From contig NZ_JAMZDZ010000001.1 in NCBI RefSeq assembly GCF_024172085.1, forward strand, positions 7,192,001 to 7,256,000: a DNA stretch of 64,000 bases, written 5' to 3'. This stretch comes from Hamadaea flava. Its GTDB lineage: Bacteria > Actinomycetota > Actinomycetes > Mycobacteriales > Micromonosporaceae. This document shows, piece by piece, positions 48,916-64,000 of the stretch; the first letter of the stretch is position 1; every line of letters begins with the position of its first letter. The notes under the pieces are model-generated. The model saw only the letters and a program-made list of their open reading frames with translations, did not search any database and was not told the DNA's origin. Position numbers and translations under genes: made by a program.

Positions 48916-49075
48916 CGCGCACCCCCGAGCAGCCGGCTAGATCGGAGGTTATCAACCGGTAGCCGCCATGATCCACCCGTCGCGGGCTCGCGTATAGCGG
49001 ACGTATAAACGGGCTCCCCGACACTTCCTTCTCCCGGCTGCCAAGGGGCGAGCCGGTCTCCAGGAAGGAACGTGG

Positions 49076-52000
49076 ATGCGACAACGCGTGTTCGGCGTAC
49101 CCGTGCGTGCAATGCGCAGTCCCGGAATGAGGCGACCTCGACGGAGAGGTCGCCTTCCGGTGTTCGGATCAGTCCGTGGATCGTTGGCCGTCATCGTCTC
49201 GACCGCGGTCGCGATGTCGATGCTGGGCAGCGCGCCGGTGTTCGCTGCCAAGCCGAAGCAGGCCACCGCCGAGACTGCCGACACGGCCGTCCCAGTGTCG
49301 GTGGCAAAAAGCAAGCAGCCGTCCGCGTCGCAGACCGATGGTCCTGGCGTACGCGCCATGGACCGCAAATCGCCGCCCGCCGGTGGTGCGAACGTGGTGG
49401 CCGTCGACGGCCGTGCCGCGACGGTCGGGGGGCTCGCGATCGCGGTCTCGCCCGCCTCCAGCGACCCCGAGGACCGGCGAGCCACCGCTGCTGCGGCCGG
49501 TGCGCCGTCTTCCGTCCGCGTACACGTGGCTGATCAGCAGCTGAGCGCGAAGCTGCACCTGCGCGGCGTCGCGCTGAGTCTGTCCCGGGCCGATTCCGCC
49601 ACGGATTCCGGCCGAGTCCGCGTTCGGGTCGATTATTCGCAGTTCGCCAACCTGTATGGCGCGGACTACGGACAACGGCTGCGGCTGGTGCAGCTTCCGT
49701 CGTGCGCACTGACCACGCCGGACCTGGCCGAATGCCAGACTCGTACGCCGCTGGCGTCGACGAACGCAGCCGGAGCGGTGTCGGCCGAAGTCACGGTCAG
49801 CGGCGACTCGTCCGCCGCCTCCGGCTCGGTGGTGGCCCTGGCCTCCTCCACCTCGTCGGACGGAGCCACGTTCTCGGCGACGACGCTTTCGCCGGCGTAC
49901 TCGTGGACGGCGGGAACCCCCGGTGGCGGCTTCTCCTGGAACTATCCGCTGAAGGTTCCGGCCGGGCTGGGCGGCCCGACGCCCGACCTCTCGCTGTCGT
50001 ACGACTCCGGTTCGGTCGACGCACAGACGCTGGCGCAGAACGGGCAGGCGTCCTGGGTTGGCGAAGGGTGGGACCTGCCGGTCAACTTCATCGAGCGCTC
50101 CTATCGGTCCTGTGCGCTGGACGGGGTCCTCACCGCCGACCTCTGCTGGTTCTCGTCCTACAACGCCACCCTGGTCTTCCAAGGTCGTTCGTCGATTCTG
50201 GTCCGGGACAGCGCCACCGGCGTGTGGCACGCGTCCGACGACTCCGGGCTGAAGGTCGAGAAGCTCGCCGACACCTCGCTGGGCAACGGCGACAACGACG
50301 GCGAGTACTGGAAGGTCACCACCCTCGACGGGACGCAGTACTTCTTCGGAAAGCACAAGCGGTACAGCGGCGACACGGCCGTGACCAATTCGGTGCAGAC
50401 CGAGCCGGTCTTCGGCAACAACTCCGGCGAGCCGTGCTACAACTCGTCCGGGTACGCCGCGTCGTCGTGCCAGCAGGCGTACCGGTGGAACCTGGACTAT
50501 GTCGTCGACCCGCGCGGCAACTCGATGACCTACTTCTACGCGAAGAAGACCGGGTACGTCGGGACGAACAACAACACGAAGGTGCAGCCGTATGTGATCA
50601 ACGGGACGCTGGATCACATCGACTACGGCACCCGGGCGGGTTCGGAGGCGTCGGGCAACGCGCCCGCGCAGGTGTGGTTCACCCGCGCGGAGCGTTGCGT
50701 CAACACGTGCGCGCAGAACACCTCCGACTATCCCGACACCCCGTGGGACCTGTACTGCTCGTCGTCGACGTCGTGCCCGGACGTGCTGAACCCGGCGTTC
50801 TGGACGCAGTACCGGCTGTCGGACGTGCACACCCAGGTGTGGGATGCCGGCCGCAGTGCGTACCGCCGAGTCGATCAGTGGAACCTGACCCACACCTGGC
50901 CGACCTCCGGCGACAACATCACCCCGGCGGGCGCCGACACGTCGCCCAATCTCTGGCTTCAGAGCCTGACCCACGTCGGGTACGCCGCCGACGGGACCAC
51001 GACGATGGCTGAGCCGGCGATCACATTCGGCGGTACGGCGATGTTCAACCGGGTCGACTGGGGCAACGACATCGGCGTCGCGCCGTACACCCATTACCGG
51101 ATCACGTCGGTCCTCAACGGCACCGGCGGGCAGACCGTCGTCGCGTACGCCCCGACGCAGTGCGTACGGGCGACGAAGCCGCTGTCGGACTCCAACCCGT
51201 TGCGCTGCTTCCCGCAGTACTTCAAGCCGCAGATCGCGGATGCCGGCTGGGGCTGGTTCCACAAGTACATCGTCAACTCCGTGACCGAGAAGGACCTGGT
51301 CGGCGGCTCGCCGGACATGGTGACGTCGTACGCCTATTCGACCAGCGGCACGACCGACGCCGCCCTGTGGCACCACGACTACGGCGAGACCGCCGACATG
51401 AGCTTCACGTCGTGGGCGCTGTGGCGTGGGTACGCGTCGGTCACCGTCACGCGCGGCAGCGGCCCGCAGACTGTGACCCGGTCGACCTACTACCGGGGCA
51501 TGGACAACGACGCCAAGCACAAGACAACCGCGATCGCGTGGGGTGCCCGCCGATCCGCCGTCACCGCCTCGCTCGACGTGCCGAACACCGTCGGCGGCCT
51601 TACGGGCGCCGGTACGAAATGCCTGGACCTGGCCAACGGCGGTACCGCCAACGGCACCAACGTTCAGTTGGGGGACTGCACCGGCGCGGCCAGCCAGGTA
51701 TGGGACCTGATCGCCGACGGCAACGGCGCTCACTATCTGAAGAACCCGGCCTCCGGTCGCTGCCTGGATCTGAATCAGAATGGAACCGCCAACGGGACCA
51801 ACGTTCAGCTATGGGACTGCACCAACGGCACCAACCAACTGTGGGAGCACCAGGCTGACGGCTCGTGGAAGAATCCGGTCTCTGGGCGCTGCCTCGACAT
51901 CGACAACGCGCGTACGGCCAACGGCACGAACGTCCGGCTCTTCGACTGTTCCGGCGGCTGGAACCAGATGTGGCAGCCCCAGGCCAACGGGTCGATGGCC

Positions 52001-55000
52001 AGCGTGCAAGCGACCCGGTGCGTGGACCTGGCCGGATACGGCACGACGAACGGTGTCCGCGTGCAAACGTGGGACTGCACAGGTGTCGACAACCAGCTGT
52101 GGCAGTTGCAGGCGGACGGGACCATCAAGAACCCGTACTCCGGTCGTTGCATCGACGTCAAAGACTCCGCTACCGCGGCCGGCAGCCCGGTCCAATTGTG
52201 GGACTGCACCGCGGCCGCCAACCAGATCTGGACGCTGCAGGCGAACGGGACTCTGAAGAATCCGGCTTCCGGACGCTGCCTCGACATCGGCGTCAATCCA
52301 GTGCTGACCGCCCCTCTGATCATCGCCGACTGCACCGGGGCCATCGGCCAAACCTGGATCAGCTGGCTCCGGGACGCCGACGGCACCCAGGGTTTCCTCC
52401 GTGAAACGGCCCGGCTCGACGGCAGCCAGGTAACCACGTCGACAATCCATACCGCGACGGTCCGGCAGACCGCGCAGCGAGCGTCGGCGGCCACCGGCGG
52501 CCAGGACGTCACCGCGTACATGGTCAGCGACGCCGAGGAGCAGACCCGCACCTGGCTGGCGGCCAGTTCGAAGTGGCGGTGGACCGACACTCAGACCACT
52601 TACGACGCCTACGGCCTGGCGACCGGGGTCAAGGAATGGGGCGACCCCGCCACAGCGGCGGACGACAAGTGCACGGACACCACCTATGTCGCGCGCGACA
52701 CCGCCAAGTATTTGATCGACTATGTCGCGATGTCCGTCGTGCACGACTGCGCGGTCCCGCGCGACCGGCGCTACCTGAGTGGGAAGGAATACTGGTACGA
52801 CAACCAGACAATCTTTGGCGACGTGCCCACCCGGGGCCTGGCCACCACGACCAAGGCATTGACCTACGTGGCCCCGATCAGGTCCTCGGAGACCTGGGAG
52901 CAGCAGAGCCGCACCGAGTACGACGCGTACGGTCGCCCAACTGCAAGCTACGACGCACTGGATCGCAAGACGACCACGGCGTACACGCCCGCCACGGGTG
53001 GGCCGATCACCGCGGTGGCCGTGACGAACCCCAAGGGCGTCGGGTGGACGACCACCACGACCGTCGAGCCCGGGCACGGCACTGCGCTGACCGTGACCGA
53101 TGTCAACGGAAAGGTCACCACCGGCGCCTATGACCCGCTCGGCCGCCTGGTGAGGACCTGGCAGCCCGGGCACGCCACGTCCGGCACGCCCGACAACGCT
53201 TACCAGTACGTGCTCAGCGGTTCCGCCTCGTCCTACGTGTTGGCGAAGACCCTTGGCCCGGGTGGGCAGCAGATCGTGTCGTACCAGATCCTCGACGGCA
53301 ACTTGCGCGCTCGCCAGAGCCAGACCCCGACTGCCGACGGCGGCCGGACGATCAGCGACACCACCTACGACAATCGTGGCCTGACGGCCAAGACGTCGAC
53401 CTTCTATAGCACCGGCGCGCCGGCAGCCACCCTTGCCACGTTCGCCGACACTGCCGTCGGGAACCAGCACCGGTACACATACGACGCGCTCGAACGTCAG
53501 CTAACCGACCAGTTGTGGTCCACGAACGTTCTCAAGTGGACAGTCGCCAGCGCCTCCTTCGACGGCGACCGCACCACGGTCGACAACGTCGCCGGGGGCA
53601 CCGACACCACCAAGATCGTGGACGCCCTCGGGCGCACCGTCGAACTCTGGCAGTACCAGGGTTCCAGCCCGACCGGTGCCCACGACACCACCCGCTACCA
53701 GTACGACCAGCTCGCACGTCTGGTCAAGACGATCGGCCCGGACAACGCCCAGTGGACCTACACCTACGACATGCTCGACCGGCGAAAGCAGACGGTTGAC
53801 CCGGACACCAGCACCTCGATCATCGGGTATGACGCGGCCGGTCAGGTCACCTCGACCACCGACAACCGCGGCCAGGTCCTCGTCTACACCTATGACGAGC
53901 TGGGCCGCAAAACCGCCGAGTACGCCGGCAGCCAGTCCGATGCCAACCAGCGGGCCCAGTGGCAGTACGACACGCTGGCCAAGGGGCAGCTCTATTCCTC
54001 GAAACGGCTGCCGAGCGGAGTCGGGGGGGCCACCTACACCACCACGACCTACGCGGTGGACGACAACTATCGTCCATTGACGGTCAGCCAGTTCTTCTCC
54101 GCAGCCGAAGGCTCCGCAGTCGGGGGGAAGACCTTCACGGTCAACTACACCTACAAGCCGAACGGGAGTCTCGCGACCAGCACCACCGCCAACGTGGCCG
54201 GGGCCGCAATCGGCGGGCTGCCCGTAGAGACCCTCACCTACGGCTACAACTCCGTCGGCCAGCCCGTCACCCTGACCGGCGCGCAGACCTACATCGCCGA
54301 CACCGCCTACACCTACGACGGCCAGATCGGCCAGCAGATCCTGGGCGTACCAGGCAAGCAGGTCCGGCAGACCTACTCCTACGACGCGGCCACCCGGTTC
54401 ATGACCGCCGCTCAGGTAGACACGGAAAGCCAGAGCACGCCGGGAACCTGGACCGACAAACTCACCGACGAGTACGGCTACGACAGTGCCGGAAACGTCC
54501 AATGGACGGCAACCAAGAACGCCGGTACCCGCGACGGAGCCGAGTGCTTCGACTACGACTACCTCCGCCGGCTCACCGACGCATGGACCGAATCCGCCGT
54601 CACCTGCAACAGTTCCGCCAAGCAGAAGACCGGAGCGGCACCGGCGTACCGGATGTCCTGGACCTTCGACGCTGCCGGCAACCGCAAGACCGAAACCAAC
54701 TACAACACCGACGGGAGCATCGGATACCAGTCGACGTACGCCTACGGCGGCACGGGGAAACCACTCCACTCGCTCGCCTCGGTGACGACCACCGGCTCCG
54801 GAGCCGGCACCACCACGTACGACTACGACGCCTCAGGCAACACCACGAGCCGGCCCGGAGCGGGCGGCGCCCAGCAAGCCCTGACGTGGGATGAGGAGGG
54901 CAAGCTCAGCAAGGTCACGGACAGCACGGACACCGTCATGGTGTACGACGCCGACGGCGAACGGATCGTGCGCCGTGATCCCGGTGGCTACCGCACTCTC

Positions 55001-56080
55001 TTCCTGCTCGACGGCACCGAACTACGGGTCAACGCGGACGGCGCGATCGCCGCGACCCGCTACTACGGCACGGTCGGCGTACGCACCGCGAACGTCGACG
55101 CCTCAGGGAACCTGACCTCTGGTGACACGCTCACCTGGACGTTCAGTGACCACCACGGCACCGGCAACATCGCCGTCGACTCGTCGACCCTGACATGTCA
55201 GCGGCGACGCTCACTGCCCTACGGGGCTGCTCGCGGCAGCCAGCCGGCTGGCTTCGGGAGCAAGGGCTTCGTGGGCGGCACCAACGACGCGACCGGACTG
55301 GTCGACATCGGCGCTCGCCAGTACGACCCGACGATCGGGCGCTTCATCAGCGTCGACCCGGTCTTCACCGCCGACGATCCGCAGAGCTGGAACGGCTACG
55401 CGTACGCCAACGACGCACCGGTCACCTCCAGCGACCCCACCGGCGAAACCGCCAAGGACCCCGGCGACGGAGGTAGCTGCGACAAGAAGTGCCAAGACGA
55501 CCGCGACGACTACTACGACACCTGCGGCCCGCACGACGAGAAGTGCAAGGACGACGGCGGTTACCAGCAGAAGAAGGAGAAGGAGAGGCAGAAGGAGAAG
55601 CAGCGGAAGGAGGACGAGCAGCGCGGAAAGGAGGATCGCGAGAAGCCGAAGCCACGTGAGTGCGGGTTCATTTGCGAGTTGATGGTGGAATCCGCCACCA
55701 CGATCGGTGAGTACGCCTGCAAGGCAGCTGTCGGTGCGGGCGGCCTGATCGGAGTTGCCGCGTGCGGGTTGGCAGTCGGCGCAGTGTCGGGAATCGTCGA
55801 GTATCTGTATCAGCACTACAATCGTGACTTCGACTGGGTCGACTTTGGTATGACGGTTCTGTGGAAGGCGGTCGCCGGGGCATTGGTGGCCACGGGAGCC
55901 GGTTTCCTGGCCAAGTACGCCATAGATATCGGGCTGATGTTCGAATCTGTGTCAGCCAAACTGGCCTCTGTTGTCGGGCGTGTTGCGGGTGCCAAGGCAG
56001 GTGATCTGGCACTGAGCGCCCTCAAGACCATCGGTGACGGACTCTACTTTGTGCTCCGAACAGTCCGGAACAAGGATTGA
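49076..56080 (+). CDS. Secreted Rhs/YD-repeat polymorphic toxin with ricin-B lectin domains
   Basis: 2334-aa protein. A long signal peptide (hydrophobic core about residues 36-55, cleavage near VFA-AKP) indicates secretion. Six ricin-B repeats (GRCLDL..ANGTNVQLWDC..QxW) at about 845-1095 make two beta-trefoil lectins. YD repeats run from about 1280 to 1960. The RHS-associated core (GFVGGTNDATGLVDIGARQYDPTIGRFISVDP) lies near 2060-2120. The C-terminal about 210 residues after DPTGE are a variable tip: a Cys/Lys/Glu-rich charged linker, then two hydrophobic segments near 2235-2255 and 2280-2300. The tip is lower in GC, pointing to module exchange. ATG 49076 follows AGGAAGGA. Confidence 0.9.
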   Translation: MRQRVFGVPVRAMRSPGMRRPRRRGRLPVFGSVRGSLAVIVSTAVAMSMLGSAPVFAAKPKQATAETADTAVPVSVAKSKQPSASQTDGPGVRAMDRKSPPAGGANVVAVDGRAATVGGLAIAVSPASSDPEDRRATAAAAGAPSSVRVHVADQQLSAKLHLRGVALSLSRADSATDSGRVRVRVDYSQFANLYGADYGQRLRLVQLPSCALTTPDLAECQTRTPLASTNAAGAVSAEVTVSGDSSAASGSVVALASSTSSDGATFSATTLSPAYSWTAGTPGGGFSWNYPLKVPAGLGGPTPDLSLSYDSGSVDAQTLAQNGQASWVGEGWDLPVNFIERSYRSCALDGVLTADLCWFSSYNATLVFQGRSSILVRDSATGVWHASDDSGLKVEKLADTSLGNGDNDGEYWKVTTLDGTQYFFGKHKRYSGDTAVTNSVQTEPVFGNNSGEPCYNSSGYAASSCQQAYRWNLDYVVDPRGNSMTYFYAKKTGYVGTNNNTKVQPYVINGTLDHIDYGTRAGSEASGNAPAQVWFTRAERCVNTCAQNTSDYPDTPWDLYCSSSTSCPDVLNPAFWTQYRLSDVHTQVWDAGRSAYRRVDQWNLTHTWPTSGDNITPAGADTSPNLWLQSLTHVGYAADGTTTMAEPAITFGGTAMFNRVDWGNDIGVAPYTHYRITSVLNGTGGQTVVAYAPTQCVRATKPLSDSNPLRCFPQYFKPQIADAGWGWFHKYIVNSVTEKDLVGGSPDMVTSYAYSTSGTTDAALWHHDYGETADMSFTSWALWRGYASVTVTRGSGPQTVTRSTYYRGMDNDAKHKTTAIAWGARRSAVTASLDVPNTVGGLTGAGTKCLDLANGGTANGTNVQLGDCTGAASQVWDLIADGNGAHYLKNPASGRCLDLNQNGTANGTNVQLWDCTNGTNQLWEHQADGSWKNPVSGRCLDIDNARTANGTNVRLFDCSGGWNQMWQPQANGSMASVQATRCVDLAGYGTTNGVRVQTWDCTGVDNQLWQLQADGTIKNPYSGRCIDVKDSATAAGSPVQLWDCTAAANQIWTLQANGTLKNPASGRCLDIGVNPVLTAPLIIADCTGAIGQTWISWLRDADGTQGFLRETARLDGSQVTTSTIHTATVRQTAQRASAATGGQDVTAYMVSDAEEQTRTWLAASSKWRWTDTQTTYDAYGLATGVKEWGDPATAADDKCTDTTYVARDTAKYLIDYVAMSVVHDCAVPRDRRYLSGKEYWYDNQTIFGDVPTRGLATTTKALTYVAPIRSSETWEQQSRTEYDAYGRPTASYDALDRKTTTAYTPATGGPITAVAVTNPKGVGWTTTTTVEPGHGTALTVTDVNGKVTTGAYDPLGRLVRTWQPGHATSGTPDNAYQYVLSGSASSYVLAKTLGPGGQQIVSYQILDGNLRARQSQTPTADGGRTISDTTYDNRGLTAKTSTFYSTGAPAATLATFADTAVGNQHRYTYDALERQLTDQLWSTNVLKWTVASASFDGDRTTVDNVAGGTDTTKIVDALGRTVELWQYQGSSPTGAHDTTRYQYDQLARLVKTIGPDNAQWTYTYDMLDRRKQTVDPDTSTSIIGYDAAGQVTSTTDNRGQVLVYTYDELGRKTAEYAGSQSDANQRAQWQYDTLAKGQLYSSKRLPSGVGGATYTTTTYAVDDNYRPLTVSQFFSAAEGSAVGGKTFTVNYTYKPNGSLATSTTANVAGAAIGGLPVETLTYGYNSVGQPVTLTGAQTYIADTAYTYDGQIGQQILGVPGKQVRQTYSYDAATRFMTAAQVDTESQSTPGTWTDKLTDEYGYDSAGNVQWTATKNAGTRDGAECFDYDYLRRLTDAWTESAVTCNSSAKQKTGAAPAYRMSWTFDAAGNRKTETNYNTDGSIGYQSTYAYGGTGKPLHSLASVTTTGSGAGTTTYDYDASGNTTSRPGAGGAQQALTWDEEGKLSKVTDSTDTVMVYDADGERIVRRDPGGYRTLFLLDGTELRVNADGAIAATRYYGTVGVRTANVDASGNLTSGDTLTWTFSDHHGTGNIAVDSSTLTCQRRRSLPYGAARGSQPAGFGSKGFVGGTNDATGLVDIGARQYDPTIGRFISVDPVFTADDPQSWNGYAYANDAPVTSSDPTGETAKDPGDGGSCDKKCQDDRDDYYDTCGPHDEKCKDDGGYQQKKEKERQKEKQRKEDEQRGKEDREKPKPRECGFICELMVESATTIGEYACKAAVGAGGLIGVAACGLAVGAVSGIVEYLYQHYNRDFDWVDFGMTVLWKAVAGALVATGAGFLAKYAIDIGLMFESVSAKLASVVGRVAGAKAGDLALSALKTIGDGLYFVLRTVRNKD

Positions 56081-56098
56081 GACTCAGAGGATGGGCAA

Positions 56099-56413
56099 GT
56101 GTTGATGCAGGCGCTTCGGGACACTCTCCTGGGCTGTTGCGGCGCCTCGATCGTTATCGCGGCATGGGCGTTGATATTCAAGAGAGAGCCTCGGGAGCGT
56201 CGTAATTCATCCACTATGGATAGAGAGACGATGCTGAAGCTGATCGAGAAAGGGCGCCTCCTGGAGGTGATGCAGGCGATTCGGAAGCAGACGGGAGTCC
56301 CGCATGACCAAGCTCTGAAGGCGATCAAGGCTGCCAGGGCTGGGGACCGATCGCTCCTCGACGCCTGTTTCGAACCGGATGCGTCCAGACCGGGGGGCAC
56401 GCGAGACGTCTGA
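56099..56413 (+). CDS. Small membrane protein, candidate Rhs immunity factor
   Basis: 104-aa protein beginning 18 bp after the Rhs stop. It has an N-terminal hydrophobic segment (about residues 9-27, LLGCCGASIVIAAWALIF), a basic linker, and a C-terminal helical pair MLKLIEKGRLLEVMQAIRKQTGVPHDQALKAIKAARAG. That pair resembles the C-terminal fold of ribosomal L7/L12 seen in small actinobacterial proteins. GTG 56099 has GAGG 8 nt upstream; ATG 56105 is an alternative. Composition is lower in GC than neighbours, like the Rhs tip. Position suggests immunity to the membrane-active tip (inference only). Confidence 0.7.
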   Translation: MLMQALRDTLLGCCGASIVIAAWALIFKREPRERRNSSTMDRETMLKLIEKGRLLEVMQAIRKQTGVPHDQALKAIKAARAGDRSLLDACFEPDASRPGGTRDV

Positions 56414-56431
56414 ATAACGCGGCGAAAGTTG

Positions 56432-56466
56432 CTGCCCGCGTCGAGACGCTGTCTTGACGCGGGCAG
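56432..56466 (+). terminator. Terminator of the Rhs/immunity unit
   Basis: CTGCCCGCGTC (56432-56442) pairs perfectly with GACGCGGGCAG (56456-56466); the 13-nt loop contains a further GAGAC/GTCTT pair. It is an 11-bp perfect stem 18 bp after the small gene's stop. Confidence 0.75.
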
Positions 56467-56604
56467 CCTGCTGTCCGAGTGCCGGCCTCAGCTCGTACGG
56501 GCGCGGAGCGCCGCCGCGAATCCCACCTTCCCCTGCGCCTCATGCAGCCCGACCGCCCTGCGTCTTCGCCGTCGACGGCGGATGCCGTTGGCTACCCTCG
56601 GTGG

Positions 56605-57213
56605 GTGATCAAGGTGTTGCTGGTCGAGGACATGCATCTCATCCGGGGTGCGCTGGCGGCGCTGATCGCCCTCGAACCGGATCTGGCGGTCGCCGGTCAG
56701 GTGGCGACCGGGGAGGAGGCCGTCTCGCTCGCCCGGGTGGTGCGCCCGGACGTCGCGCTCCTGGACATTCGGCTGCCCGGTCGGTGGGACGGCCTCGACA
56801 CCGCGGAGCAGTTGCGGGAATGGGTTCCGGAGTGCGCGCTGCTGATGCTGACTTCGGCCGGGCGGCCGGAGACGTTGCGGCGGGCGCTGGAAATAGGTGC
56901 ACGGGGGTTCATGCTCAAGGATGCCGAGCCGGCGCGGCTGGCCGAGGCGATCCGGCGGGTCGCCGTGGGGGAGACGGTCGTGGATCCGGGGCTGGCCGCC
57001 GCCGCGATCGTGCAGCGACCCAATCCGCTGACCGCCCGGGAGGTCGAGGTGCTGCGCCGGGCGGGGGAGGGCGCTGACTTGGCCGACATCGCCGCGGAGT
57101 TCTTCCTGAGTAAGGGGACCGTTCGCAATTATCTCGGTGCGATCGTCACGAAACTAGGTGCGCGCAATCGGCTCGACGCGGTCCGGATCGCGGCCGATAA
57201 CAGCTGGATATAG
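56605..57213 (+). CDS. NarL/FixJ-family response regulator
   Basis: 202-aa response regulator. The receiver domain has the acidic pair in VLLVEDMHLIRG (Asp9), phospho-acceptor Asp54 (DVALLDIRLPG), Thr in MLTSAG and Lys in FMLKDAE. The LuxR-type helix-turn-helix is LTAREVEVLRRAGEGADLADIAAEFFLSKGTVRNYLGAIVTKLGARNRLDAVRIA. GTG at 56605 begins exactly at the receiver fold (IKVLLVED). It is convergent with the histidine kinase gene, and the two coding sequences overlap by 60 bp at their 3' ends. It is a presumed cognate pair despite opposite orientation. Confidence 0.92.
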   Translation: MIKVLLVEDMHLIRGALAALIALEPDLAVAGQVATGEEAVSLARVVRPDVALLDIRLPGRWDGLDTAEQLREWVPECALLMLTSAGRPETLRRALEIGARGFMLKDAEPARLAEAIRRVAVGETVVDPGLAAAAIVQRPNPLTAREVEVLRRAGEGADLADIAAEFFLSKGTVRNYLGAIVTKLGARNRLDAVRIAADNSWI

Positions 57214-58821
57214 CACCGTCAGGCGGTACTCTTCGCCGGTCTGTTCGATGTGGAAGGTGCCGCCGGCGGCCGTCACGCGTTCGGTCAGGTTCGCGGTGCC
57301 GCTACCAGTCTCGGCGACACTGCCGGAGACGCCGTCGTTGACGATGGTCAAGCCGTCGGGGGTGACTTCGATCCGGCAGCGGGTGGCGGCGCTGTGCCGC
57401 AGGACGTTGGTGACGGCTTCGCGCAGGACCACGGCCAGCAGCGGGTCGTCGCGGTCGGCGGTGCGGTCGACGTCGACGTGCGTACCGGCGGCCGTGAGGA
57501 GCGTGCGGGCCGTGTCCAGCTCGGCGGCCAGCGACAGGCGTGGGTCGGGGTCTGCCGGAATGGCGCGCAGGGCGGCCAGGGAGTCGCGGGCGACCGACGT
57601 GATCGTGGACAGCTCTGTGCGTACACTTTGGACATGCTTGGCCAGTTCGGCCTGGAGCGTGATCGCGGACAGGCCGGACCCGAGCAGATCGTGGACGTCG
57701 CGCGAGATGCGTCGGCGCTCACCGGCGGCGGCCAGCGCGGACAGCGCGCGCCGGGCCTCGCGGGCCTGGAGCACGAGGGTGGTCTGCGCGGCGAGGCCGG
57801 CGAACATGACGCCGATCGCGACCGTGTTGAAGCTCCAGTACACGTTCTCGGGCAGGTCGTAGCCGCGGGCCGCGAGCACCGCGGCCGTGCCCGCCACCGA
57901 CACCGCGGCGAGCGGCCACCAGAACCGCCCGGCGGCCAGGAATCCGGCCGCCGCGAAACCCGCGAGCTGCGGGTAGGCGCGCCCGGGATAGACCAGGCCC
58001 ACGGCCGCGACTGCGCCTAACGCCCATAAAGGCCATATAGTACGCGGAACGGGAATAGTCAGCGCGAGATGAAGTCCCAGCGCGACCGCCAGAAGCACCG
58101 ACGGCAACGGCCGGCCGCCGAGGTAGATCAGCCCGGTGATCAGGTAGCCGCCGTGGACCGCGAGCAGGATCGGCAGCGCCAGCCGGGGCGGGAGGTCGGG
58201 CTCGGGCACTAGCTGGGCCGGGGTAAGCGAGACCGCACGGGCCTGGGCGGTGGCCGACCGGGCGACCTCGGCGATCCCCGCGAGATCACCCTGCGCGGCC
58301 AGCGCGATGATCCTCGACAACGCGGTCCCGACTGCGGATTCGAGATGCTGGGCGGCTTGGGCGCGTTCGGCTTCGACGGTACGCGCGGCCAGTTCCGCCC
58401 GAGTCGCCTCGACGGCTGCGCGGGTGTCGCCGAGCCGGGTCACCGCGAACAGCACCAGACCCTGACCACCGGCGTTGAGGACGGCCAGCGCGATCCCGAA
58501 GGGAACTGCTGGGACCAGCAGCGCGGCCAGGAGGACGGCTGCCGCGTACACGATCCACCGGGCGGCGCCGCGCACGACGAGCAGGGCGGACGCGGCGACC
58601 ATCCCAGCCGCGCCCGGACCGGCGAAGGGCAGGAGGACGACTTGGGCGGCGAGCGTCCACCGGCTGCGCCAGGGCGTCAGACAGTGCAGCAGTTGCAGAA
58701 CGACGACCGCCGCGAAGGCGGGGTTCGGCACCGGGCGCAGCGGATCGAGGGCGACACCCGCGAGGACCACCAGAATGATCAACGCGTTACGTCCGGCCTG
58801 CCCCACTCGTGCATTCTGCAC
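57154..58821 (-). CDS. NarL-type sensor histidine kinase with duplicated DHp region
   Basis: 555-aa membrane kinase. Two membrane blocks (about residues 12-125 and 212-350) are each followed by a DHp-like helix. The functional HisKA_3 region is RRRISRDVHDLLGSGLSAI with phospho-His377, then the ATPase with N-box VLREAVTNVLRHSAATR and G-box TGSGTANLTERVTAAGG. The earlier copy, LESAVGTALSRIIALAAQGD near 160, lacks the His (Glu at the aligned position). This suggests an internal duplication with one decayed half. Its 3' end overlaps the response regulator by 60 bp. Start at 58821 reads from a GTG/ATG region near the window-wide GC norm. Confidence 0.88.
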   Translation of the reverse strand: MQNARVGQAGRNALIILVVLAGVALDPLRPVPNPAFAAVVVLQLLHCLTPWRSRWTLAAQVVLLPFAGPGAAGMVAASALLVVRGAARWIVYAAAVLLAALLVPAVPFGIALAVLNAGGQGLVLFAVTRLGDTRAAVEATRAELAARTVEAERAQAAQHLESAVGTALSRIIALAAQGDLAGIAEVARSATAQARAVSLTPAQLVPEPDLPPRLALPILLAVHGGYLITGLIYLGGRPLPSVLLAVALGLHLALTIPVPRTIWPLWALGAVAAVGLVYPGRAYPQLAGFAAAGFLAAGRFWWPLAAVSVAGTAAVLAARGYDLPENVYWSFNTVAIGVMFAGLAAQTTLVLQAREARRALSALAAAGERRRISRDVHDLLGSGLSAITLQAELAKHVQSVRTELSTITSVARDSLAALRAIPADPDPRLSLAAELDTARTLLTAAGTHVDVDRTADRDDPLLAVVLREAVTNVLRHSAATRCRIEVTPDGLTIVNDGVSGSVAETGSGTANLTERVTAAGGTFHIEQTGEEYRLTVLYPAVIGRDPDRVEPIART

Positions 58822-58879
58822 GCCGGATCGAGGCGCCTGACACTGATGTGAGCGGGATCCCGCCGGGCAGGCTCAGCGT

Positions 58880-60682
58880 ATGAAGATCGCGCTCGCCGCC
58901 CTGCTCATGACCCTGACGATCGCGCCAGCCCCGGCCGCCGACCTCGACGCGTCGGTCGCCGCAATGCTCGCCGAGGACCGCATACCGGGGGCCGCGGTCG
59001 TCATCGTCGAACGCGGCAAGCCGGCCGTCATCGAGACCTATGGGGACGCCGACGTCACGTCGCACCGCCCGGTCGACGCCACCACACCGTTCCTCACCGG
59101 CTCGCTGGCCAAGGTGTTCACGGCCGAAGCCGTGCTGCGGCAGGCCGCGTCCGGCGCGGTCGACCTGACCGCCGACGTGAACCGTTACCTGACCGGGTTC
59201 CAGATCGACGACACCTACCCGGGGCGGCCCGTCACGGTGCAGAACCTGCTCACCTACACCGCCGGGTTCGACGAAGACCTCGTCGGCCTGGCGGGCGATC
59301 CGGACGACCTGCCGTCGCTGGCCGACAGCGTGGCCGCCCGCCAGCCGGAGCGCGTACGCCCGCCGGGCACGCGGATCGCGTACGACAACTACGCCCTGGC
59401 GCTGGCCGGGCGGATCGTGGAGACGACCTCCGGTCAGGCGTACGCCGATTATGTGGCCCAGCATGTGTTCGCCGCCCACGGCATGACCGGCTCCACCGCC
59501 GCAGTCCCGCATCCCGCCGAGGTCGCACAGCGTCTCGCGGTGGGCTATCGGCCCGACGGCGACGGCTACGCCGAACAGCGCGGCCAGTACGCCCCCTGGA
59601 CCCCGTCGGGCACCGGGCCGGCGGTGACCCCGTCGGACATGGCGGCGTACCTGGCGTATCAGCTGTCCGGCGATCCGATCGCCGAGCAGATGCAGCGTCA
59701 GCACGTCACCCAGGACGCCCGCATGCCCGGCATGGGGTACGTGCTGGAGGAACGGCCCCGCAACGGGCAGCGGGTGCTGTTCAAGGACGGCGACGTTCCC
59801 GGCTACCACAACGCGATGGCGCTGCTGCCGGACCAGGGATTCGGCGTGTACGCCGTCGTCAACGGCGACGGGGTGGACGGGGTCGGCCCGTGGGCCGTCC
59901 AGAGACTCGTCAACCAGCTTATCGACCAGCGCTTTCCCGGTTCGGCGGCAGCGACGCAGTCCACTGCCACCGACGTGTCGGGTCTCGCCGGGGTCTACCG
60001 GTCGGCCCGGACCAGCCACACCAGCCTGATGAAGGCGGCCGCGTTGTTCGCGGCGCCGACCGTCGCCGCCAACGCCGACGGCACGCTCACCACCACCGGG
60101 CTGTCGCCGGACCCCGACCGGGCGACGCAGACGTGGCTGCCGATCGGGCCCGGCCTGTTCCAGGAACGCGACGGGCAGGCGCGCCTCTCGTTCCCCGGCG
60201 ACGGCGTCCTCGTCTCGTCGGCGTTGCCGTCGGAGGTCTACGAGAAACTGCCCTGGTACGACACGCCGACGGTGAACCTCGCCCTGTTCGGTGTCGGAGC
60301 GTTGGCGTTGGTGCTCGCGGCGCTCGGGCTGCCCGTCGCGCTGGCCGTACGCCGTCGCCTCGCCCCATCGCGGTGGACTCGCCTGGCGACGCTGTGCGCC
60401 TGGCTCAGCGGTGTGACCACCACGGCATTCCTGACCGGGTTCGTGCTCGTCATGTCGGACCCGAACACGATGGGTGCGTCGCTGGCGCTGAACTCCTGGG
60501 ATGTGGCGGTGCTGCCGATCCTGGCCCGGATCTCGGCCGGCTTCGCCGCACCGATGCTGCCGTTTGCCGTGGCGGCTTGGCGGTCGCGGTGGTGGGGGCC
60601 GGTCGGGCGGATCGCGTACACGGTGCTCGCGGTGGCGGCGGTGGGCTTCTTCGCGGTGGCGCTCCGCTACCACCTGCTCTGA
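58880..60682 (+). CDS. Membrane-anchored serine beta-lactamase-like hydrolase
   Basis: 600-aa protein. A signal peptide (to about residue 20) precedes a class C beta-lactamase/DD-peptidase-like domain (about 22-330). It has catalytic Ser75-x-x-Lys78 in TGSLAKVF, the Tyr motif YDNYALA near 171, and GDVPGYHNAM near 305 in place of the usual KTG/HTG. A beta-rich linker follows, then four membrane helices at about 470-600. It would act outside the membrane on peptides or esters. ATG 58880. Divergent from the histidine kinase (58 bp), so it may be in that system's regulon. Confidence 0.88.
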   Translation: MKIALAALLMTLTIAPAPAADLDASVAAMLAEDRIPGAAVVIVERGKPAVIETYGDADVTSHRPVDATTPFLTGSLAKVFTAEAVLRQAASGAVDLTADVNRYLTGFQIDDTYPGRPVTVQNLLTYTAGFDEDLVGLAGDPDDLPSLADSVAARQPERVRPPGTRIAYDNYALALAGRIVETTSGQAYADYVAQHVFAAHGMTGSTAAVPHPAEVAQRLAVGYRPDGDGYAEQRGQYAPWTPSGTGPAVTPSDMAAYLAYQLSGDPIAEQMQRQHVTQDARMPGMGYVLEERPRNGQRVLFKDGDVPGYHNAMALLPDQGFGVYAVVNGDGVDGVGPWAVQRLVNQLIDQRFPGSAAATQSTATDVSGLAGVYRSARTSHTSLMKAAALFAAPTVAANADGTLTTTGLSPDPDRATQTWLPIGPGLFQERDGQARLSFPGDGVLVSSALPSEVYEKLPWYDTPTVNLALFGVGALALVLAALGLPVALAVRRRLAPSRWTRLATLCAWLSGVTTTAFLTGFVLVMSDPNTMGASLALNSWDVAVLPILARISAGFAAPMLPFAVAAWRSRWWGPVGRIAYTVLAVAAVGFFAVALRYHLL

Positions 60683-60795
60683 CCCATCTCCGCGACGGAA
60701 GCCCGCGCTGTGTCGGATTCGGCTCCGGAGAACATCACCAGGGCGAAAGTTCCGCCGGTAGTTCCGTCGCTCAGCGGCCTTCTTACAGCGCCGTC

Positions 60796-60917
60796 ACCGG
60801 TTCGGGAGCGCCTGACTCATCGCGGCGACGTCCTGGTACTCGCGCCACTGCACGACCTGGCCGTCGCGTACGCGAAGCACGGTGCAGAGATTCAACGAGC
60901 GTTGAGCGAACGTGGCC
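60796..60917 (-). pseudogene. C-terminal remnant of a SnoaL/NTF2-like protein
   Basis: On the minus strand about 40 codons read LNLCTVLRVRDGQVVQWREYQD then end at TGA (60794-60796). The RV.DG.VV.WREY pattern is typical of the last strand and helix of SnoaL-like NTF2 proteins. An in-frame stop lies just upstream, so the N-terminal two thirds are gone. Confidence 0.6.
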
Positions 60918-60950
60918 CGGGGTCAACCTCGGCACCGATAGAGTCGAGCG

Positions 60951-61268
60951 GTGAGCGAATCCGTGTCCCGCGCTGAGCGGCGGCGGCGTACCGAGGAACG
61001 CATCCTGGCCGCCGCCCGGAAGAGCTTCGCCGAGGTCGGCTACGAACGGACCACGATCCGTTCGGTCGCGGGCGCGGCCCGAGTGGACCCGGCTCTGGTC
61101 ATGCAGTACTTCGGGGCGAAGGAGGAGCTGCTACTCGTCGCGATCATCGTCGGCGTGACGATGACCCGGGGCATGATCGAGCTCGATCACCTGCAAGCGG
61201 CCACCCCTGAGCAGATCACCCGGCTGCTTCGGCCCAGCATCGAGGCGCTCGTCGGTGACGGCGCCTGA
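60951..61268 (+). CDS. Truncated TetR-type DNA-binding protein
   Basis: 105-aa protein with a complete TetR helix-turn-helix (residues about 10-62: RTEERILAAARKSFAEVGYERTTIRSVAGAARVDPALVMQYFGAKEELL) but only a short helical stretch after it. TetR proteins are normally about 190 aa, so most of the ligand-binding domain is missing. GTG 60951. Its 3' end overlaps the next gene by 14 bp. It is divergent from the SnoaL-like remnant, so both may be leftovers of one inactivated locus. It might still bind DNA as a dimer-defective repressor. Confidence 0.7.
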   Translation: MSESVSRAERRRRTEERILAAARKSFAEVGYERTTIRSVAGAARVDPALVMQYFGAKEELLLVAIIVGVTMTRGMIELDHLQAATPEQITRLLRPSIEALVGDGA

Positions 61269-61746
61269 GCTGGCGCGGCGGCTGCGGGCGATCAGCTGGG
61301 ACGGCGGCTTCCGGCATACCCGATCCCGCGTCGCGCTGATGTCGGAGTACCTGCGCCGGGCCGCCTGGTGGGCCGGCCACGTCGGCCATCCCGGCGAGTG
61401 GCCTTTCTTCGACCTCGCCGGCGCCGTGGATCCCACCGTCCGCGCCGACGTCACGCTGCTCGGCACCGGCATTCCCGGCTGGTACGCCAGACGCATATGC
61501 ACGTGGGCGCTGCACTTCGCCGAACTGCGCACAGTGGCCGGTGATCGGCTGCCCGGCCTCGACGACCCGTTCGAGCCGCTGATCGTGCTGTTCGAACGCG
61601 GCGGCGACTTCACCACCGCCCACGGCCGGATCGAGGTCGACCTCGTCCAGTTCCCGCAGCGACCGTGGACGGCGTACCGGACGGCGGTCCCGGTGGTCGA
61701 CCTCGACCCGGCCGCCTTGGACCGAATCGACGGGATTACGCCTTAG
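61255..61746 (+). CDS. Uncharacterised protein
   Basis: 163-aa soluble protein starting at GTG 61255 inside the end of the truncated TetR gene. It contains RAISWDGGFRHTRSRVALMSEYLRRAAWWAGHVGHPGEWPFFDLAG and LLGTGIPGWYARRICTWALHF with several Trp, and ends in a strand-rich part (GRIEVDLVQFPQRPWTAYRTAVPVVDLDPAALD). No membrane segment. I do not recognise a family; its length and codon bias support a real gene. Its stop overlaps the convergent NB-ARC regulator by 11 bp. Confidence 0.6.
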   Translation: MTAPELARRLRAISWDGGFRHTRSRVALMSEYLRRAAWWAGHVGHPGEWPFFDLAGAVDPTVRADVTLLGTGIPGWYARRICTWALHFAELRTVAGDRLPGLDDPFEPLIVLFERGGDFTTAHGRIEVDLVQFPQRPWTAYRTAVPVVDLDPAALDRIDGITP

Positions 61747-64000
61747 CCGTCGGCTCGGCGAGTGCCGTACGCGCGTCGTCGGCCTCCGGCATGCCCAGCC
61801 CGGTGTAGAGCTCGAGGGCCGTCTCGAAATGGGCCCGCGCGCGGTCTTCGTCGTCCAGCGCGCGGAGGACGTGGCCCATCCCGAGATGGGCCTGGGCCTC
61901 CTGGTGGAACCCTCTGATCTGCTCCGCCATGGCCAGCGCCCGCCGATAGAGCGCCAGGGCATCCTCGGGCCGGCCTTGGCGGAGGGCCGCCTCACCCATG
62001 CCGTTGAGCGAGCCGGCCTCGGCGGCCGGTACGCCGACCTGATGGAAGAGCTGGACCGCCTGGCGAAACCGTTCGGACGCCGCCGGGGCGTCCCCGAGGC
62101 GCAGGAGCAACATCCCCAGTTTGTCCAGCGTGTGCGCTTCCACGATCGGGGTGCTCAGTTCGTGGAGGATGACCAGCGAGGCATCGAAGTGGTCCGCGGC
62201 CGCCGCGAGATCTCCGAGTCTGGTCTCGATGACCCCGAGATTGGTCAGCGCGTTCGCCTGGAACCGCCGCGCGTCGAGGTCCCGGAACCGCCTCAGCGCC
62301 TCGCGCTGGTGCTCGCCCGCCTCGGCGTACCGGCCGTGTTGTTGCAGGAGGACGGCCAGATTGTTGAACGCGATCGCCTCGCCGAGCGCGTCGTCCGCTT
62401 TGGTCGCGACGGCGATCGCCTCGCGTGTCTGTGCCATCGACTCCGCACCGCGGCCGAGGTGACTCAGCGCCACGCCGAGGCCGAGGTACGCCAAAGTCTC
62501 GGCGAGTGGGTCGCCGGCTCGGCGAGCGTGGGCGAGCGAACCCTGCTGGCACTCGAGGGCCAGGTCGACCTGACTCATCCGGCTGTAGGCCGCCCCGAGC
62601 AGCCGCAATGCGTGCGCCAGCGCGCTCGGGTCGTCGGTCCCCTCCGCCGAGCGCCGGGCCTGGTCGCCGAGCGCGATCGCCTCGGTGAGATGAGTGTCGA
62701 TCAGATACCGATGCACGATCCGGGCGAGGGCGACCACGTACGAGTACTTGCCGCAGGCGGCGACGTGGGCGGCGACGGCGATCAGGCAGAAGCGTTCGGC
62801 GTCGAGCCAGGCACCGGCCGCATCCGGTGTCGTCAGGTCTGGAATCGTTGCGCTGGAAGGGATTCGTGGTGGTCGGTGGGATGCTTCGGCCGGGTGCAGG
62901 CAGTCCATCGCGGCCGTCGCAGCCGCCCGATAGAAGTCGAGCAACCGTCCCGTGGCGTTCTCCCGTTCGTCCCGGGTGAGGTGGAGGTTCGCCAGGCTTC
63001 CGGCGTACGCGCGCAGCAGATCGTGCAAGCCGTAGCGGTTGGGCGCCGATCGGTGCACCAGGTGCGCCCGGGCGAGGACGGCGAGGTTCTGGCGCGCCTG
63101 GTCGATGGGCACACCGGTCAGCGCGGCGACGGCGTACGGGTCGATGTCGGGTCCGGGATGCAGCCCGAGCAGTCGAAACGTTTCGAGCGCAGCCGTGGGC
63201 AGGTGATGGATCGACCACGAGAAGACCTCGCGCACTGCGGCGTACGGGTCGCCCCCGGGATCGAGCAGGTCGAGCCGGGATTGCCGATCGGTCAGCTCCG
63301 CGTTGAGTTCGGCGAGCGTGCTGTCGGGCCGGGAGACGGCCAGCTCCGCCGCGACCCGCAGGGCCAGCGACAACCGCGCGCACTGCTCGGCGAGCAGGGC
63401 GGTGGCTACCGGTTCCTCCTCCGCTCGGCGGCCGATGAGGCGGTTCAGCAGGTCGACCGCTTCGGTGATCGTCAGCAGTCCAAGATCCAGCCGGTACGCC
63501 CCGTCCACCGCGACCAGTCCGGCCAGGCTGTCCCGGCTGGTGACCACGACCAGACACGAGCCCGAACCTGGCAGCAGCGACCGGACCTGCCGTACGCCCG
63601 CGGCGTTGTCCAGCACGATCAGCATCCGCTTGCCGGCGACCTCGCTGCGGAATCGCGCAGCCCGATCGTCCTCCGCGAGCGGGACGTTGTGGCTGGTCAG
63701 ACCGAGCGCGGTGAGGAAACGGGCGAGGGCGTCGCCGGTGGCCATCGGCTGCTCGGGGTCATAACCACGCAGATTCACATAGAGCTGGCCATCCGGGAAC
63801 CTGGCGCGTACGCGGTGCGCCCAGTGCACGGCCAGCGTGGTCTTGCCGACGCCGGCGGTGCCACCGATCACGGCGATCTTCATCGCCTGCTCCGGTACGC
63901 CGCCCTCGGGGCTCAGGAACGTGTCGAGCCGGTCCAGTTCGGCCGCTCGTCCGGTAAATCCGGCGACGTCCGCCGGGAGCTGCGCCGGCACAACCGCAGG
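61736..64000 (-). CDS. NB-ARC/TPR regulator, 5' end outside window
   Basis: The frame is open to the right edge; a GTG at 63991 is internal to PAVVPAQLPADVAGFTGR, a junction typical of regulators with an upstream DNA-binding domain. About 754 residues remain. The NB-ARC ATPase includes VIGGTAGVGKTTLAVHWAH, LYVNLRGYDPEQP, LIVLDNA and VVVTSRDSLAGL. At least six TPR-like repeats follow (AFNNLAVLLQQHGRYAEAGEHQREALRRF, ANALTNLGVIETRLGDLAAAADHFDAS). It is probably an AfsR- or XRE-type signalling protein. It is similar in layout to the regulator at 46324-48915. Confidence 0.88.
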   Translation of the reverse strand, partial: PAVVPAQLPADVAGFTGRAAELDRLDTFLSPEGGVPEQAMKIAVIGGTAGVGKTTLAVHWAHRVRARFPDGQLYVNLRGYDPEQPMATGDALARFLTALGLTSHNVPLAEDDRAARFRSEVAGKRMLIVLDNAAGVRQVRSLLPGSGSCLVVVTSRDSLAGLVAVDGAYRLDLGLLTITEAVDLLNRLIGRRAEEEPVATALLAEQCARLSLALRVAAELAVSRPDSTLAELNAELTDRQSRLDLLDPGGDPYAAVREVFSWSIHHLPTAALETFRLLGLHPGPDIDPYAVAALTGVPIDQARQNLAVLARAHLVHRSAPNRYGLHDLLRAYAGSLANLHLTRDERENATGRLLDFYRAAATAAMDCLHPAEASHRPPRIPSSATIPDLTTPDAAGAWLDAERFCLIAVAAHVAACGKYSYVVALARIVHRYLIDTHLTEAIALGDQARRSAEGTDDPSALAHALRLLGAAYSRMSQVDLALECQQGSLAHARRAGDPLAETLAYLGLGVALSHLGRGAESMAQTREAIAVATKADDALGEAIAFNNLAVLLQQHGRYAEAGEHQREALRRFRDLDARRFQANALTNLGVIETRLGDLAAAADHFDASLVILHELSTPIVEAHTLDKLGMLLLRLGDAPAASERFRQAVQLFHQVGVPAAEAGSLNGMGEAALRQGRPEDALALYRRALAMAEQIRGFHQEAQAHLGMGHVLRALDDEDRARAHFETALELYTGLGMPEADDARTALAEPTAKA

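What the first reader, a model, noticed from the sequence alone, without database searches (positions are those of the whole stretch)
55442..56413. Candidate new Rhs toxin tip with membrane-type immunity protein
The last about 210 residues of the Rhs protein follow the RHS core's DPTGE end point. They consist of a Cys/Lys/Glu-rich charged linker and two hydrophobic segments with no recognisable nuclease, deaminase or protease motif. The next gene, 18 bp away, encodes a 104-aa protein with a membrane helix and an L7/L12-like tail. Both look lower in GC than the surrounding DNA, as expected for exchanged toxin/immunity modules. The tip could be membrane-active.
Basis: partly seen in the sequence, partly recalled or inferred. 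Interest (0 to 1): 0.85.

Follow-up and report, generated by a model that had tools for sequence, protein, structure and literature searches.

The report
Rhs protein ending in membrane module
A soil actinobacterium carries a large, probably secreted Rhs-type protein whose exchangeable tail is mostly a greasy two-helix module, usually found in front of other toxins but here almost at the very end, followed by a small membrane protein that may protect the cell; it looks like an unusual but not wholly new membrane-attacking toxin and immunity pair, not yet tested.

Summary
The anatomy is real. The Rhs gene (49076-56080) keeps 85.4% DNA identity with a same-genus relative up to 55419, where homology stops; tip and next gene differ. 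Hydrophobic tip plus ORF 56099-56413 is the lowest-GC stretch of the window. Genus probably Hamadaea. No close relatives of tip or partner in 300 family and 394 class genomes.

The key inference needs correction: the hydrophobic segments match a recurrent actinobacterial pre-toxin module (E 5.9e-6 against a profile built without them; 0 of 200 shuffles). It usually precedes Hint or other cargo; here 54 residues follow.

Two readings remain: a Tse5-like membrane-acting tip with membrane immunity (0.5), or a delivery module with lost or minimal cargo. In the discovery set 3 of 3 short-tail tips, but 0 of 9 cargo tips, have a membrane-protein ORF next door. My pre-specified retest was not significant (1 of 5 against 1 of 35); a second had no short-tail case. 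DUF6346-type proteins follow four other short-tail tips. The partner weakly resembles L7/L12-hairpin membrane proteins. Nothing was bench-tested.

The parts
49076..56080 (+). Rhs/YD-repeat protein, 2334 aa: signal-peptide-like N terminus (by reading), ricin-type lectin repeats, YD repeats, RHS core, tip
   Evidence: ORF; Pfam Ricin_B_lectin 1.6e-58, RHS_repeat 4e-11; TIGR03696 9.2e-15 at aa 2048-2123
55349..55444 (+). end of RHS core, reading SVDPVF...SDPTG; the two Asp-Pro motifs that by analogy form the autocleavage site
   Evidence: sequence; aspartyl protease motif DPXGX18DPXG as described in PMC10684867 (passages); here the first motif reads DPVF, so the match is partial
55445..55660 (+). 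charged Cys/Lys/Glu-rich linker, native GC3 (0.88)
   Evidence: tip residues 3-28 align with the Rhs tip of another genome (L158, E 6.9e-7)
55661..56077 (+). exchanged part of the tip: hydrophobic module plus 54-aa tail, GC3 0.70
55715..55915 (+). pre-toxin-type hydrophobic module (tip residues 91-157), two hydrophobic segments, some GxxxG-like motifs
   Evidence: profile match E 5.9e-6, 19.4 bits; hydrophobic part alone 20.5 bits, 0 of 200 shuffles; zipper-motif count 4 against shuffle mean 0.96, P 0.02, over the whole hydrophobic part, two of the four lying in the tail
55916..56077 (+). 54-residue C-terminal tail, predicted helical at low confidence
56086..56091 (+). Shine-Dalgarno-like AGAGGA, 7 nt before the GTG start
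   Evidence: read from sequence
56099..56413 (+). candidate membrane immunity protein, 104 aa: one TM helix, basic linker, L7/L12-like helical hairpin
   Evidence: (pLDDT block means 82-87 over residues 41-90)

Best explanation
An exported Rhs protein (Sec route inferred from the N terminus) with an exchangeable tip. After autocleavage at the end of the core (inferred), the released tip inserts its two-helix glycine-rich module into the cytoplasmic membrane of a neighbouring cell and depolarises or permeabilises it, as Tse5-CT does (inferred). The downstream 104-aa protein sits in the producer's membrane through one helix, with its hairpin domain probably on the cytoplasmic side, and blocks insertion or assembly of kin tips (inferred). 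Shown: gene anatomy, replacement of the tip at the core boundary, low GC of tip plus partner, match of the hydrophobic part to a recurrent module, a predicted TM helix in the partner. Not shown: toxicity, membrane insertion, immunity.
For: The hydrophobic part is almost terminal, with no Hint and only 54 residues after it. It and the partner gene form the lowest-GC stretch of the window, as one cassette would. In the discovery set of 12 module-bearing tips, 3 of 3 short-tail ones (this locus, its orthologue L048 in the same genus, L179) have a TM-containing ORF downstream, against 0 of 9 with Hint or longer cargo. Among 128 tips (2 excluded), hydrophobic tips without Hint have a TM ORF next door in 7 of 14 cases with an ORF, against 12 of 80 for the rest (p 0.007; against Hint-less non-hydrophobic tips alone p 0.047); with a Shine-Dalgarno filter 6 of 8 against 6 of 35 (p 0.003); at a place 300 nt further on, 2 of 9 against 6 of 61 (all post hoc). 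DUF6346-type membrane proteins stand 8-14 nt behind four other short-tail module tips (L179, L232, L233, L239; two of the four tested against Pfam), and a PF19873 search found L247, also behind a module frame. Precedent: Tse5-CT forms pores and its immunity Tsi5 has two predicted TM regions (PMC9637101, passages).
Against: A first scoring rule gave no association (3 of 7 against 8 of 29, p 0.36). The pre-specified test on new genomes was not significant (short-tail 1 of 5, cargo 1 of 35, p 0.24). The second pre-specified test yielded no short-tail locus (0 of 22 kept), so the same module usually serves other toxins. Under the second rule the first new set has 2 of 9 short-tail tips with a TM partner and 7 without. 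The module match is partly compositional (bias correction 9.2 bits beside a score of 19.4), and the best single-sequence match of the hydrophobic part (L069, E 0.0047) was equalled by 2 of 100 shuffles. The structure models are poor (tip mean pLDDT 56; partner 67.8) and Foldseek against PDB gave 0 matches with E <= 0.001. A glycine zipper can serve translocation rather than killing (Tde1, PMC10240207, passages).
Confidence: 0.5

Rival explanations
1. The hydrophobic part is only the generic delivery (pre-toxin) module, and the toxin that once followed it has been lost or cut down to a 54-residue stub. The downstream gene is a leftover or unrelated small gene.
For: 8 of the other 11 module tips of the discovery set carry Hint plus cargo and L166 carries 133 aa of cargo; 22 of 22 kept loci of the second test set carry more than 135 aa or Hint after the module. 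No relative of the hydrophobic part with tail was found in 300 family or 394 class genomes beyond weak hydrophobic matches.
Against: The partner is a membrane protein, which would be odd for an enzymatic cargo (0 of 9). Module, tail and partner share low GC. The same-genus orthologue L048 is also short-tailed (39 aa) with a different TM partner. Short-tail module tips with DUF6346-type partners occur in four other genomes.
Confidence: 0.25
2. The module carries the 54-residue tail into the target cell, where the tail acts as a small soluble or membrane-surface toxin.
For: Module-first, cargo-last is the common arrangement; the tail is predicted helical (low confidence).
Against: The tail is short, the tip as a whole has no significant family match, and the only candidate partner gene is membrane-anchored.
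Confidence: 0.13
3. The protein is not a weapon: the tip anchors or plugs a surface-displayed YD/lectin adhesin, and the next gene is a small chromosomal membrane protein of the TM + L7/L12-hairpin type.
For: Ricin-type lectin repeats inside the Rhs protein; proteins with TM plus L7/L12 hairpin lie elsewhere in this and related genomes, not beside the Rhs matches listed.
Against: The tip is replaced in the paralogue and the orthologue, unlike a structural anchor; tip and neighbour share unusual composition.
Confidence: 0.12

Closest known systems
Tse5 / Tsi5 of Pseudomonas aeruginosa (Rhs pore-forming toxin and membrane immunity protein; PMC9637101 and PMC10684867, passages seen)
   Same: Rhs core with a short, non-enzymatic hydrophobic C-terminal fragment; small membrane immunity gene next door
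   Different: Tse5 is T6SS-delivered with a PAAR-like N terminus; this protein has a signal-peptide-like N terminus (by reading), lectin repeats and a charged linker; no match to it among PDB chains; the partner has one predicted TM helix plus a hairpin domain instead of two TM regions
Glycine-zipper membrane-depolarising toxins EsxX, TelE, TspA of T7SS (PMC12744356, passages seen)
   Same: Hydrophobic helix with GxxxG-type motifs near the C terminus; membrane-integrated immunity (ExiCD for EsxX, TsaI for TspA)
   Different: T7SS toxins, not Rhs tips; the zipper-like motifs here are few and only moderately above shuffles (P 0.02)
Pre-toxin modules before Hint in Micromonosporaceae Rhs proteins
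   Same: Similar hydrophobic module
   Different: There Hint and cargo follow and no TM-containing ORF was seen directly downstream; here the module is nearly terminal
Short-tail module tips plus DUF6346 (PF19873)-type membrane protein (L179, L232, L239; also L233 and L247, whose RHS core I did not show)
   Same: Module nearly terminal, TM protein directly downstream
   Different: Tails are 84-131 aa in L179, L232, L233 and L239; the partner family is different; the window's partner does not match DUF6346
TM + L7/L12-hairpin small proteins (e.g. L008-L012, L014, L143)
   Same: N-terminal helix, charged linker, hairpin of the L7/L12 C-terminal type (by reading)
   Different: Those mostly have two hairpins and are not next to Rhs genes as far as seen; the window's protein has one divergent hairpin and is not hit by PF00542

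Membership tests
Rhs polymorphic toxins | RHS-associated core and YD repeats | tested here: met
   TIGR03696 9.2e-15, YD_repeat_2x 2.4e-14
Rhs polymorphic toxins | conserved core with exchanged C-terminal tip | tested here: met
   85.4% DNA identity over 9106 bp ends at 55419; tip differs in L048 and in paralogue L045
Rhs polymorphic toxins | aspartyl autocleavage motif DPXGX18DPXG | tested here: inconclusive
   by reading: SVDPVF-X22-SDPTG; both Asp-Pro present, first Gly absent, spacing longer
Rhs polymorphic toxins | toxicity of the tip and protection by the adjacent gene | not testable with these tools
   needs expression assays
Tse5-type pore-forming Rhs toxin | sequence homology to Tse5 | tested here: inconclusive
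   phmmer of the tip against PDB chains gave 3 weak hits up to E 10, none named Tse5; I did not check that the set holds a Tse5 chain
Tse5-type pore-forming Rhs toxin | hydrophobic TM-like helices in the C-terminal fragment | tested here: met
   segments 93-122 and 138-156 of the tip at KD19 >= 1.6; hydropathy only
Tse5-type pore-forming Rhs toxin | T6SS delivery with PAAR-like N-terminal domain | tested here: not met
   no PAAR family among the Pfam and NCBIfam matches of the whole protein
Tse5-type pore-forming Rhs toxin | membrane immunity protein next door | tested here: inconclusive
   one TM helix predicted by hydropathy; function untested
Actinobacterial pre-toxin hydrophobic module | match to the module profile built without this tip | tested here: met
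   E 5.9e-6; reversed hydrophobic part 5.9 bits; 0 of 200 shuffles
Actinobacterial pre-toxin hydrophobic module | followed by Hint or toxin cargo | tested here: not met
   54 residues follow, no Hint
Tox-WTIP pore-forming domain (Zhang et al. 2012, PMC3482391, passages) | RxxR in helix 1 and Wx[ST]IP in helix 2 | tested here: not met
   neither is seen in the two hydrophobic segments, by reading
Ribosomal_L12 (PF00542) for the downstream protein | Pfam match | tested here: not met
   no hit at E <= 1; not among the hits listed
TM + L7/L12-hairpin proteins for the downstream protein | hairpin profile match and N-terminal TM | tested here: inconclusive
   12.0 bits, 0 of 200 shuffles, but some profile members were found with this very protein
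DUF6346 (PF19873) for the downstream protein | Pfam match | tested here: not met
   no hit at E <= 1

The most novel reading that the evidence does not exclude
In Micromonosporaceae a generic Rhs delivery module has repeatedly become the weapon itself by losing its cargo. Each such case then acquired a membrane immunity protein from a different source: DUF6346 in several genomes, and here a membrane-anchored L7/L12-type hairpin protein recruited from a chromosomal family, which would be a new type of immunity protein.
Probability: 0.25. Interest if true: 0.68.

Novelty: new variant of a known kind. Interest (0 to 1): 0.45.

Why it matters
If true, it would give actinobacterial, signal-peptide-bearing Rhs proteins a Tse5-like membrane weapon. 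It would suggest that the helper segment that carries many toxins into cells can itself become a toxin, and it would offer a testable function for DUF6346 (0 papers in the held library) as membrane immunity. If the rival is right, it is a useful caution: hydrophobic ends of Rhs tips in this group are often delivery modules, not new toxins.

Tried and rejected
Close relatives of the tip: only weak hydrophobic matches besides itself in 300 family genomes (three matches in two genomes, L004-L006; L004 and L005 lie in unrelated proteins by reading) and in 394 class genomes (three matches at E 0.007-0.008); none in plasmids; 231 pattern stretches but none confirmed in genome contigs. The partner: 7 other family genomes at E <= 0.01, 3 other class genomes, 1 weak plasmid match at E 0.8.

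Folds: tip modelled without an alignment (pLDDT 56), partner likewise (67.8); Foldseek against PDB gave 0 matches with E <= 0.001 for both (best E 2.7 for the partner, 0.26 for the tip). Solved-structure search of the partner: best E 0.025 to Exonuclease 1, judged chance.

Association of hydrophobic tips with TM partners: three rules were tried on the same 128 tips. The codon-score rule failed (p 0.36; it disfavours low-GC genes). The two offset rules gave p 0.007 and 0.003. The pre-specified test on new genomes gave p 0.24; a second had no short-tail case. Rows dropped: 2 of 128, 1 of 42 without module and 1 cut, 2 of 24 without RHS motif. The 42 loci were those listed from genomes outside G000-G060 with frames below about 3000 aa; leaving out the larger frames was not in my written rule. 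The first new set re-scored under the second rule (post hoc) kept 33 of 42 (8 without RHS motif, 1 without module): 2 of 9 against 0 of 24, p 0.07; both sets pooled kept 51 of 66: 2 of 9 against 2 of 42, p 0.14. The named set is not fully independent: L274 is the contig of L107, and 4 tails were duplicates between the sets.

Association of L7/L12-hairpin proteins with Rhs genes: a motif scan of the stored downstream ORFs of the 101 tips found none; its strict pattern missed this locus's own protein too, so it is a weak test. Comparing by eye the places listed (the list is cut), the non-ribosomal PF00542 matches do not lie beside Rhs matches.

A downstream frame shared with the Rhs gene: the 104-aa ORF is in the same frame as the Rhs gene, so one stop codon and 18 nt separate them. 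A good Shine-Dalgarno makes two genes more likely; I did not read through the stop.
Full report
WHAT IS THERE. The window lies in a single-contig genome of 8.86 Mb. A same-genus genome (G001) has a contig C2 of 565073 bases. The record of Hamadaea tsunoensis DSM 44101 fetched (L274) has a contig of the same length with the module at the same place (compare G001:C2:365882-366187). The genus is therefore most likely Hamadaea, family Micromonosporaceae (inference; lineage). The Rhs gene is 49076-56080 on the + strand, 2334 aa. It carries ricin-type lectin repeats (1.6e-58), RHS repeats and a weak SpvB-like stretch (0.0099, below the cut-off), and the RHS-associated core match ends at aa 2123. The N terminus reads like a Sec signal peptide (my reading, no predictor run).

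EXCHANGE AT THE CORE BOUNDARY. BLASTN of the window against stretches of the same-genus genome G003 (contig C51, 56001-112000) gives one long collinear block, window 46347-55419, 85.4% identity over 9106 bp, and two short matches (138 and 163 bp) elsewhere among those of 120 bp or more. The block covers the upstream regulator gene and the Rhs gene up to just before the DPTG motif. The G003 gene then has a different 264-residue tip and a different 70-aa downstream ORF (L048). The own-genome paralogue with 74% core identity has another tip again (L045). No match of 120 bp or more from window 55420-63718 was seen in that G003 stretch, so a larger rearrangement cannot be told from a pure cassette swap. 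Of 61 genomes searched, own included, 39 have core relatives at E <= 1e-10.

COMPOSITION. The four lowest of 1268 600-bp windows start at 55651-55801. GC3 is 0.88 in the core and 0.88 in the charged linker, 0.70 in the hydrophobic part and 0.72 in the downstream ORF. The lowest 139-codon stretch of the core is 0.763 (n = 133); for the shorter downstream ORF the core minimum is the same 0.721.

THE HYDROPHOBIC PART IS A RECURRENT MODULE. I collected 128 Rhs tips from the own genome and relatives, chosen from the places listed (loci; assembled; not every match was fetched). A profile was grown from the segment before Hint in L069 without the window tip; it converged on 11 tips. It scores the window tip at E 5.9e-6 (residues 91-157); hydrophobic part alone 20.5 bits, reversed 5.9 bits, 0 of 200 shuffles as high (best 8.9). 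The bias correction is large (9.2 bits), and in single-sequence comparison the best match was only E 0.0047, equalled by 2 of 100 shuffles, so I treat the match as good but not overwhelming. Of the 12 tips, 8 continue into Hint plus cargo, one (L166) has 133 aa of cargo, and three are short-tailed: this one (54 aa), its orthologue L048 (39 aa) and L179 (98 aa). A search with the module alignment found it at E <= 1e-5 in 80 of 300 family genomes; the window's own tip did not reach that threshold there.

THE PARTNER. The downstream 104-aa protein has an N-terminal hydrophobic helix, a basic stretch and a helical domain modelled at pLDDT block means of 82-87 over residues 41-90 without an alignment. 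Its matches in 300 family genomes (7 besides itself at E <= 0.01) are small hairpin proteins; six of the seven (L008-L012, L014) also show an N-terminal hydrophobic helix by reading, and the seventh (L013) is a confirmed PF00542 match. A hairpin profile gives 12.0 bits and 0 of 200 shuffles, with the caveat that part of the profile came from the same search. PF00542 itself does not reach it. Basic residues after the helix suggest a cytoplasmic hairpin domain (positive-inside rule, recalled; inference). A motif scan found no such protein among the stored downstream ORFs of the 101 tips, but its pattern was strict and missed this one too.

DOES A NEAR-TERMINAL MODULE GO WITH A MEMBRANE PARTNER? 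Discovery set: TM ORF downstream in 3 of 3 short-tail tips against 0 of 9 cargo tips. A broader comparison of hydrophobic Hint-less tips gave 7 of 14 against 12 of 80 (p 0.007), or 6 of 8 against 6 of 35 with a Shine-Dalgarno filter (p 0.003); displaced by 300 nt the figures are 2 of 9 against 6 of 61. An earlier codon-score rule gave 3 of 7 against 8 of 29 (p 0.36). These are post hoc, on related loci, and include the window locus. I then wrote a rule in the notebook and tested new genomes: 1 of 5 against 1 of 35, p 0.24. Two of the five short-tail cases looked non-genic (L242, L243), and one (L233) has a 333-aa membrane partner that exceeded my length limit. A second pre-specified test on 24 loci from named genomes kept 22, none short-tailed, so it could not decide. 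Re-scored under the second rule, the first new set gives 2 of 9 against 0 of 24 (p 0.07) and both sets 2 of 9 against 2 of 42 (p 0.14). The hypothesis is therefore suggestive, not established.

A SIDE RESULT THAT BEARS ON IT. Four short-tail module tips (L179, L232, L233, L239) have, 8-14 nt downstream, membrane proteins sharing a stretch like GP[VA]SxxGxGYWWxC. RHS context was shown for L179 and, by motif, for L232 and L239; for L233 the motif was not found in the stretch held. Two of the four partners (L179, L239) were tested against Pfam and match DUF6346 (PF19873; 7.7e-20 and 1.3e-28). A PF19873 search in 61 relatives gave 8 matches in 7 genomes. Two of the 8 (L247, and L251, which is the L179 locus) have a frame with the module upstream. 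Three others (L244-L246) follow frames with hydrophobic stretches that I did not classify; for L248-L250 I saw no such frame. No paper in the held library mentions DUF6346.

MECHANISM. Best reading: a Tse5-like tip. In Tse5 the C-terminal fragment of an Rhs protein inserts into membranes and forms ion-selective pores, and Tsi5, with two predicted TM regions, protects (PMC9637101 and PMC10684867, passages). EsxX is a membrane-depolarising toxin with a glycine zipper matched by a membrane-integrated immunity pair and by cytoplasmic ones (PMC12744356, passages). But Tde1 shows that a glycine zipper can serve translocation of another toxin domain (PMC10240207, passages), and that fits the usual place of this module before Hint. 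The choice between weapon and carrier cannot be made from sequence; I give 0.5 to the weapon, 0.25 to lost cargo, the rest to a tail toxin or a non-toxic role.

NOVELTY. Rhs proteins with exchanged tips, pore-forming Rhs tips and membrane immunity are all known kinds. New here, if confirmed, would be the Gram-positive carrier, the module turned terminal, and an L7/L12-hairpin membrane immunity protein. Paper searches for Rhs with glycine zipper, toxin and immunity (10 of 17 listed), Rhs with Streptomyces, polymorphic toxin and immunity (12 of 21), Rhs with Actinobacteria, pore-forming and related terms (15 of 43) and L7 L12 with immunity protein and related terms (8 of 310) showed nothing describing this in the titles and abstract starts listed; the papers not listed were not seen.

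Noticed in passing
L179, L232, L233, L239, L247: Membrane proteins of the DUF6346 (PF19873) kind stand directly downstream of frames that end shortly after the hydrophobic module; candidate membrane immunity family (Pfam-tested: L179, L239; found by PF19873: L247).
   Followed up: partly
L244, L245, L246: DUF6346 genes here lie behind frames with long hydrophobic stretches sharing a common look; possibly other effector types with membrane-acting tips.
   Followed up: no
window about 51600-52620 (within the Rhs gene): Ricin-type beta-trefoil lectin repeats (three matched stretches, about aa 845-1180) are inserted in the YD-repeat protein; could serve target binding.
   Followed up: no
window 46324-48915 (-): Regulator gene (AfsR/SARP-like by reading) upstream of the Rhs gene is conserved in the same place in the related genome G003.
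   Followed up: partly
G000:C1:6184588-6184851 (L143): Own-genome protein with an N-terminal hydrophobic helix and two L7/L12-type hairpins; possible source family of the Rhs neighbour.
   Followed up: partly
window 56078-56098: The 104-aa ORF is in the same reading frame as the Rhs gene, separated by one stop codon and 18 nt.
   Followed up: partly
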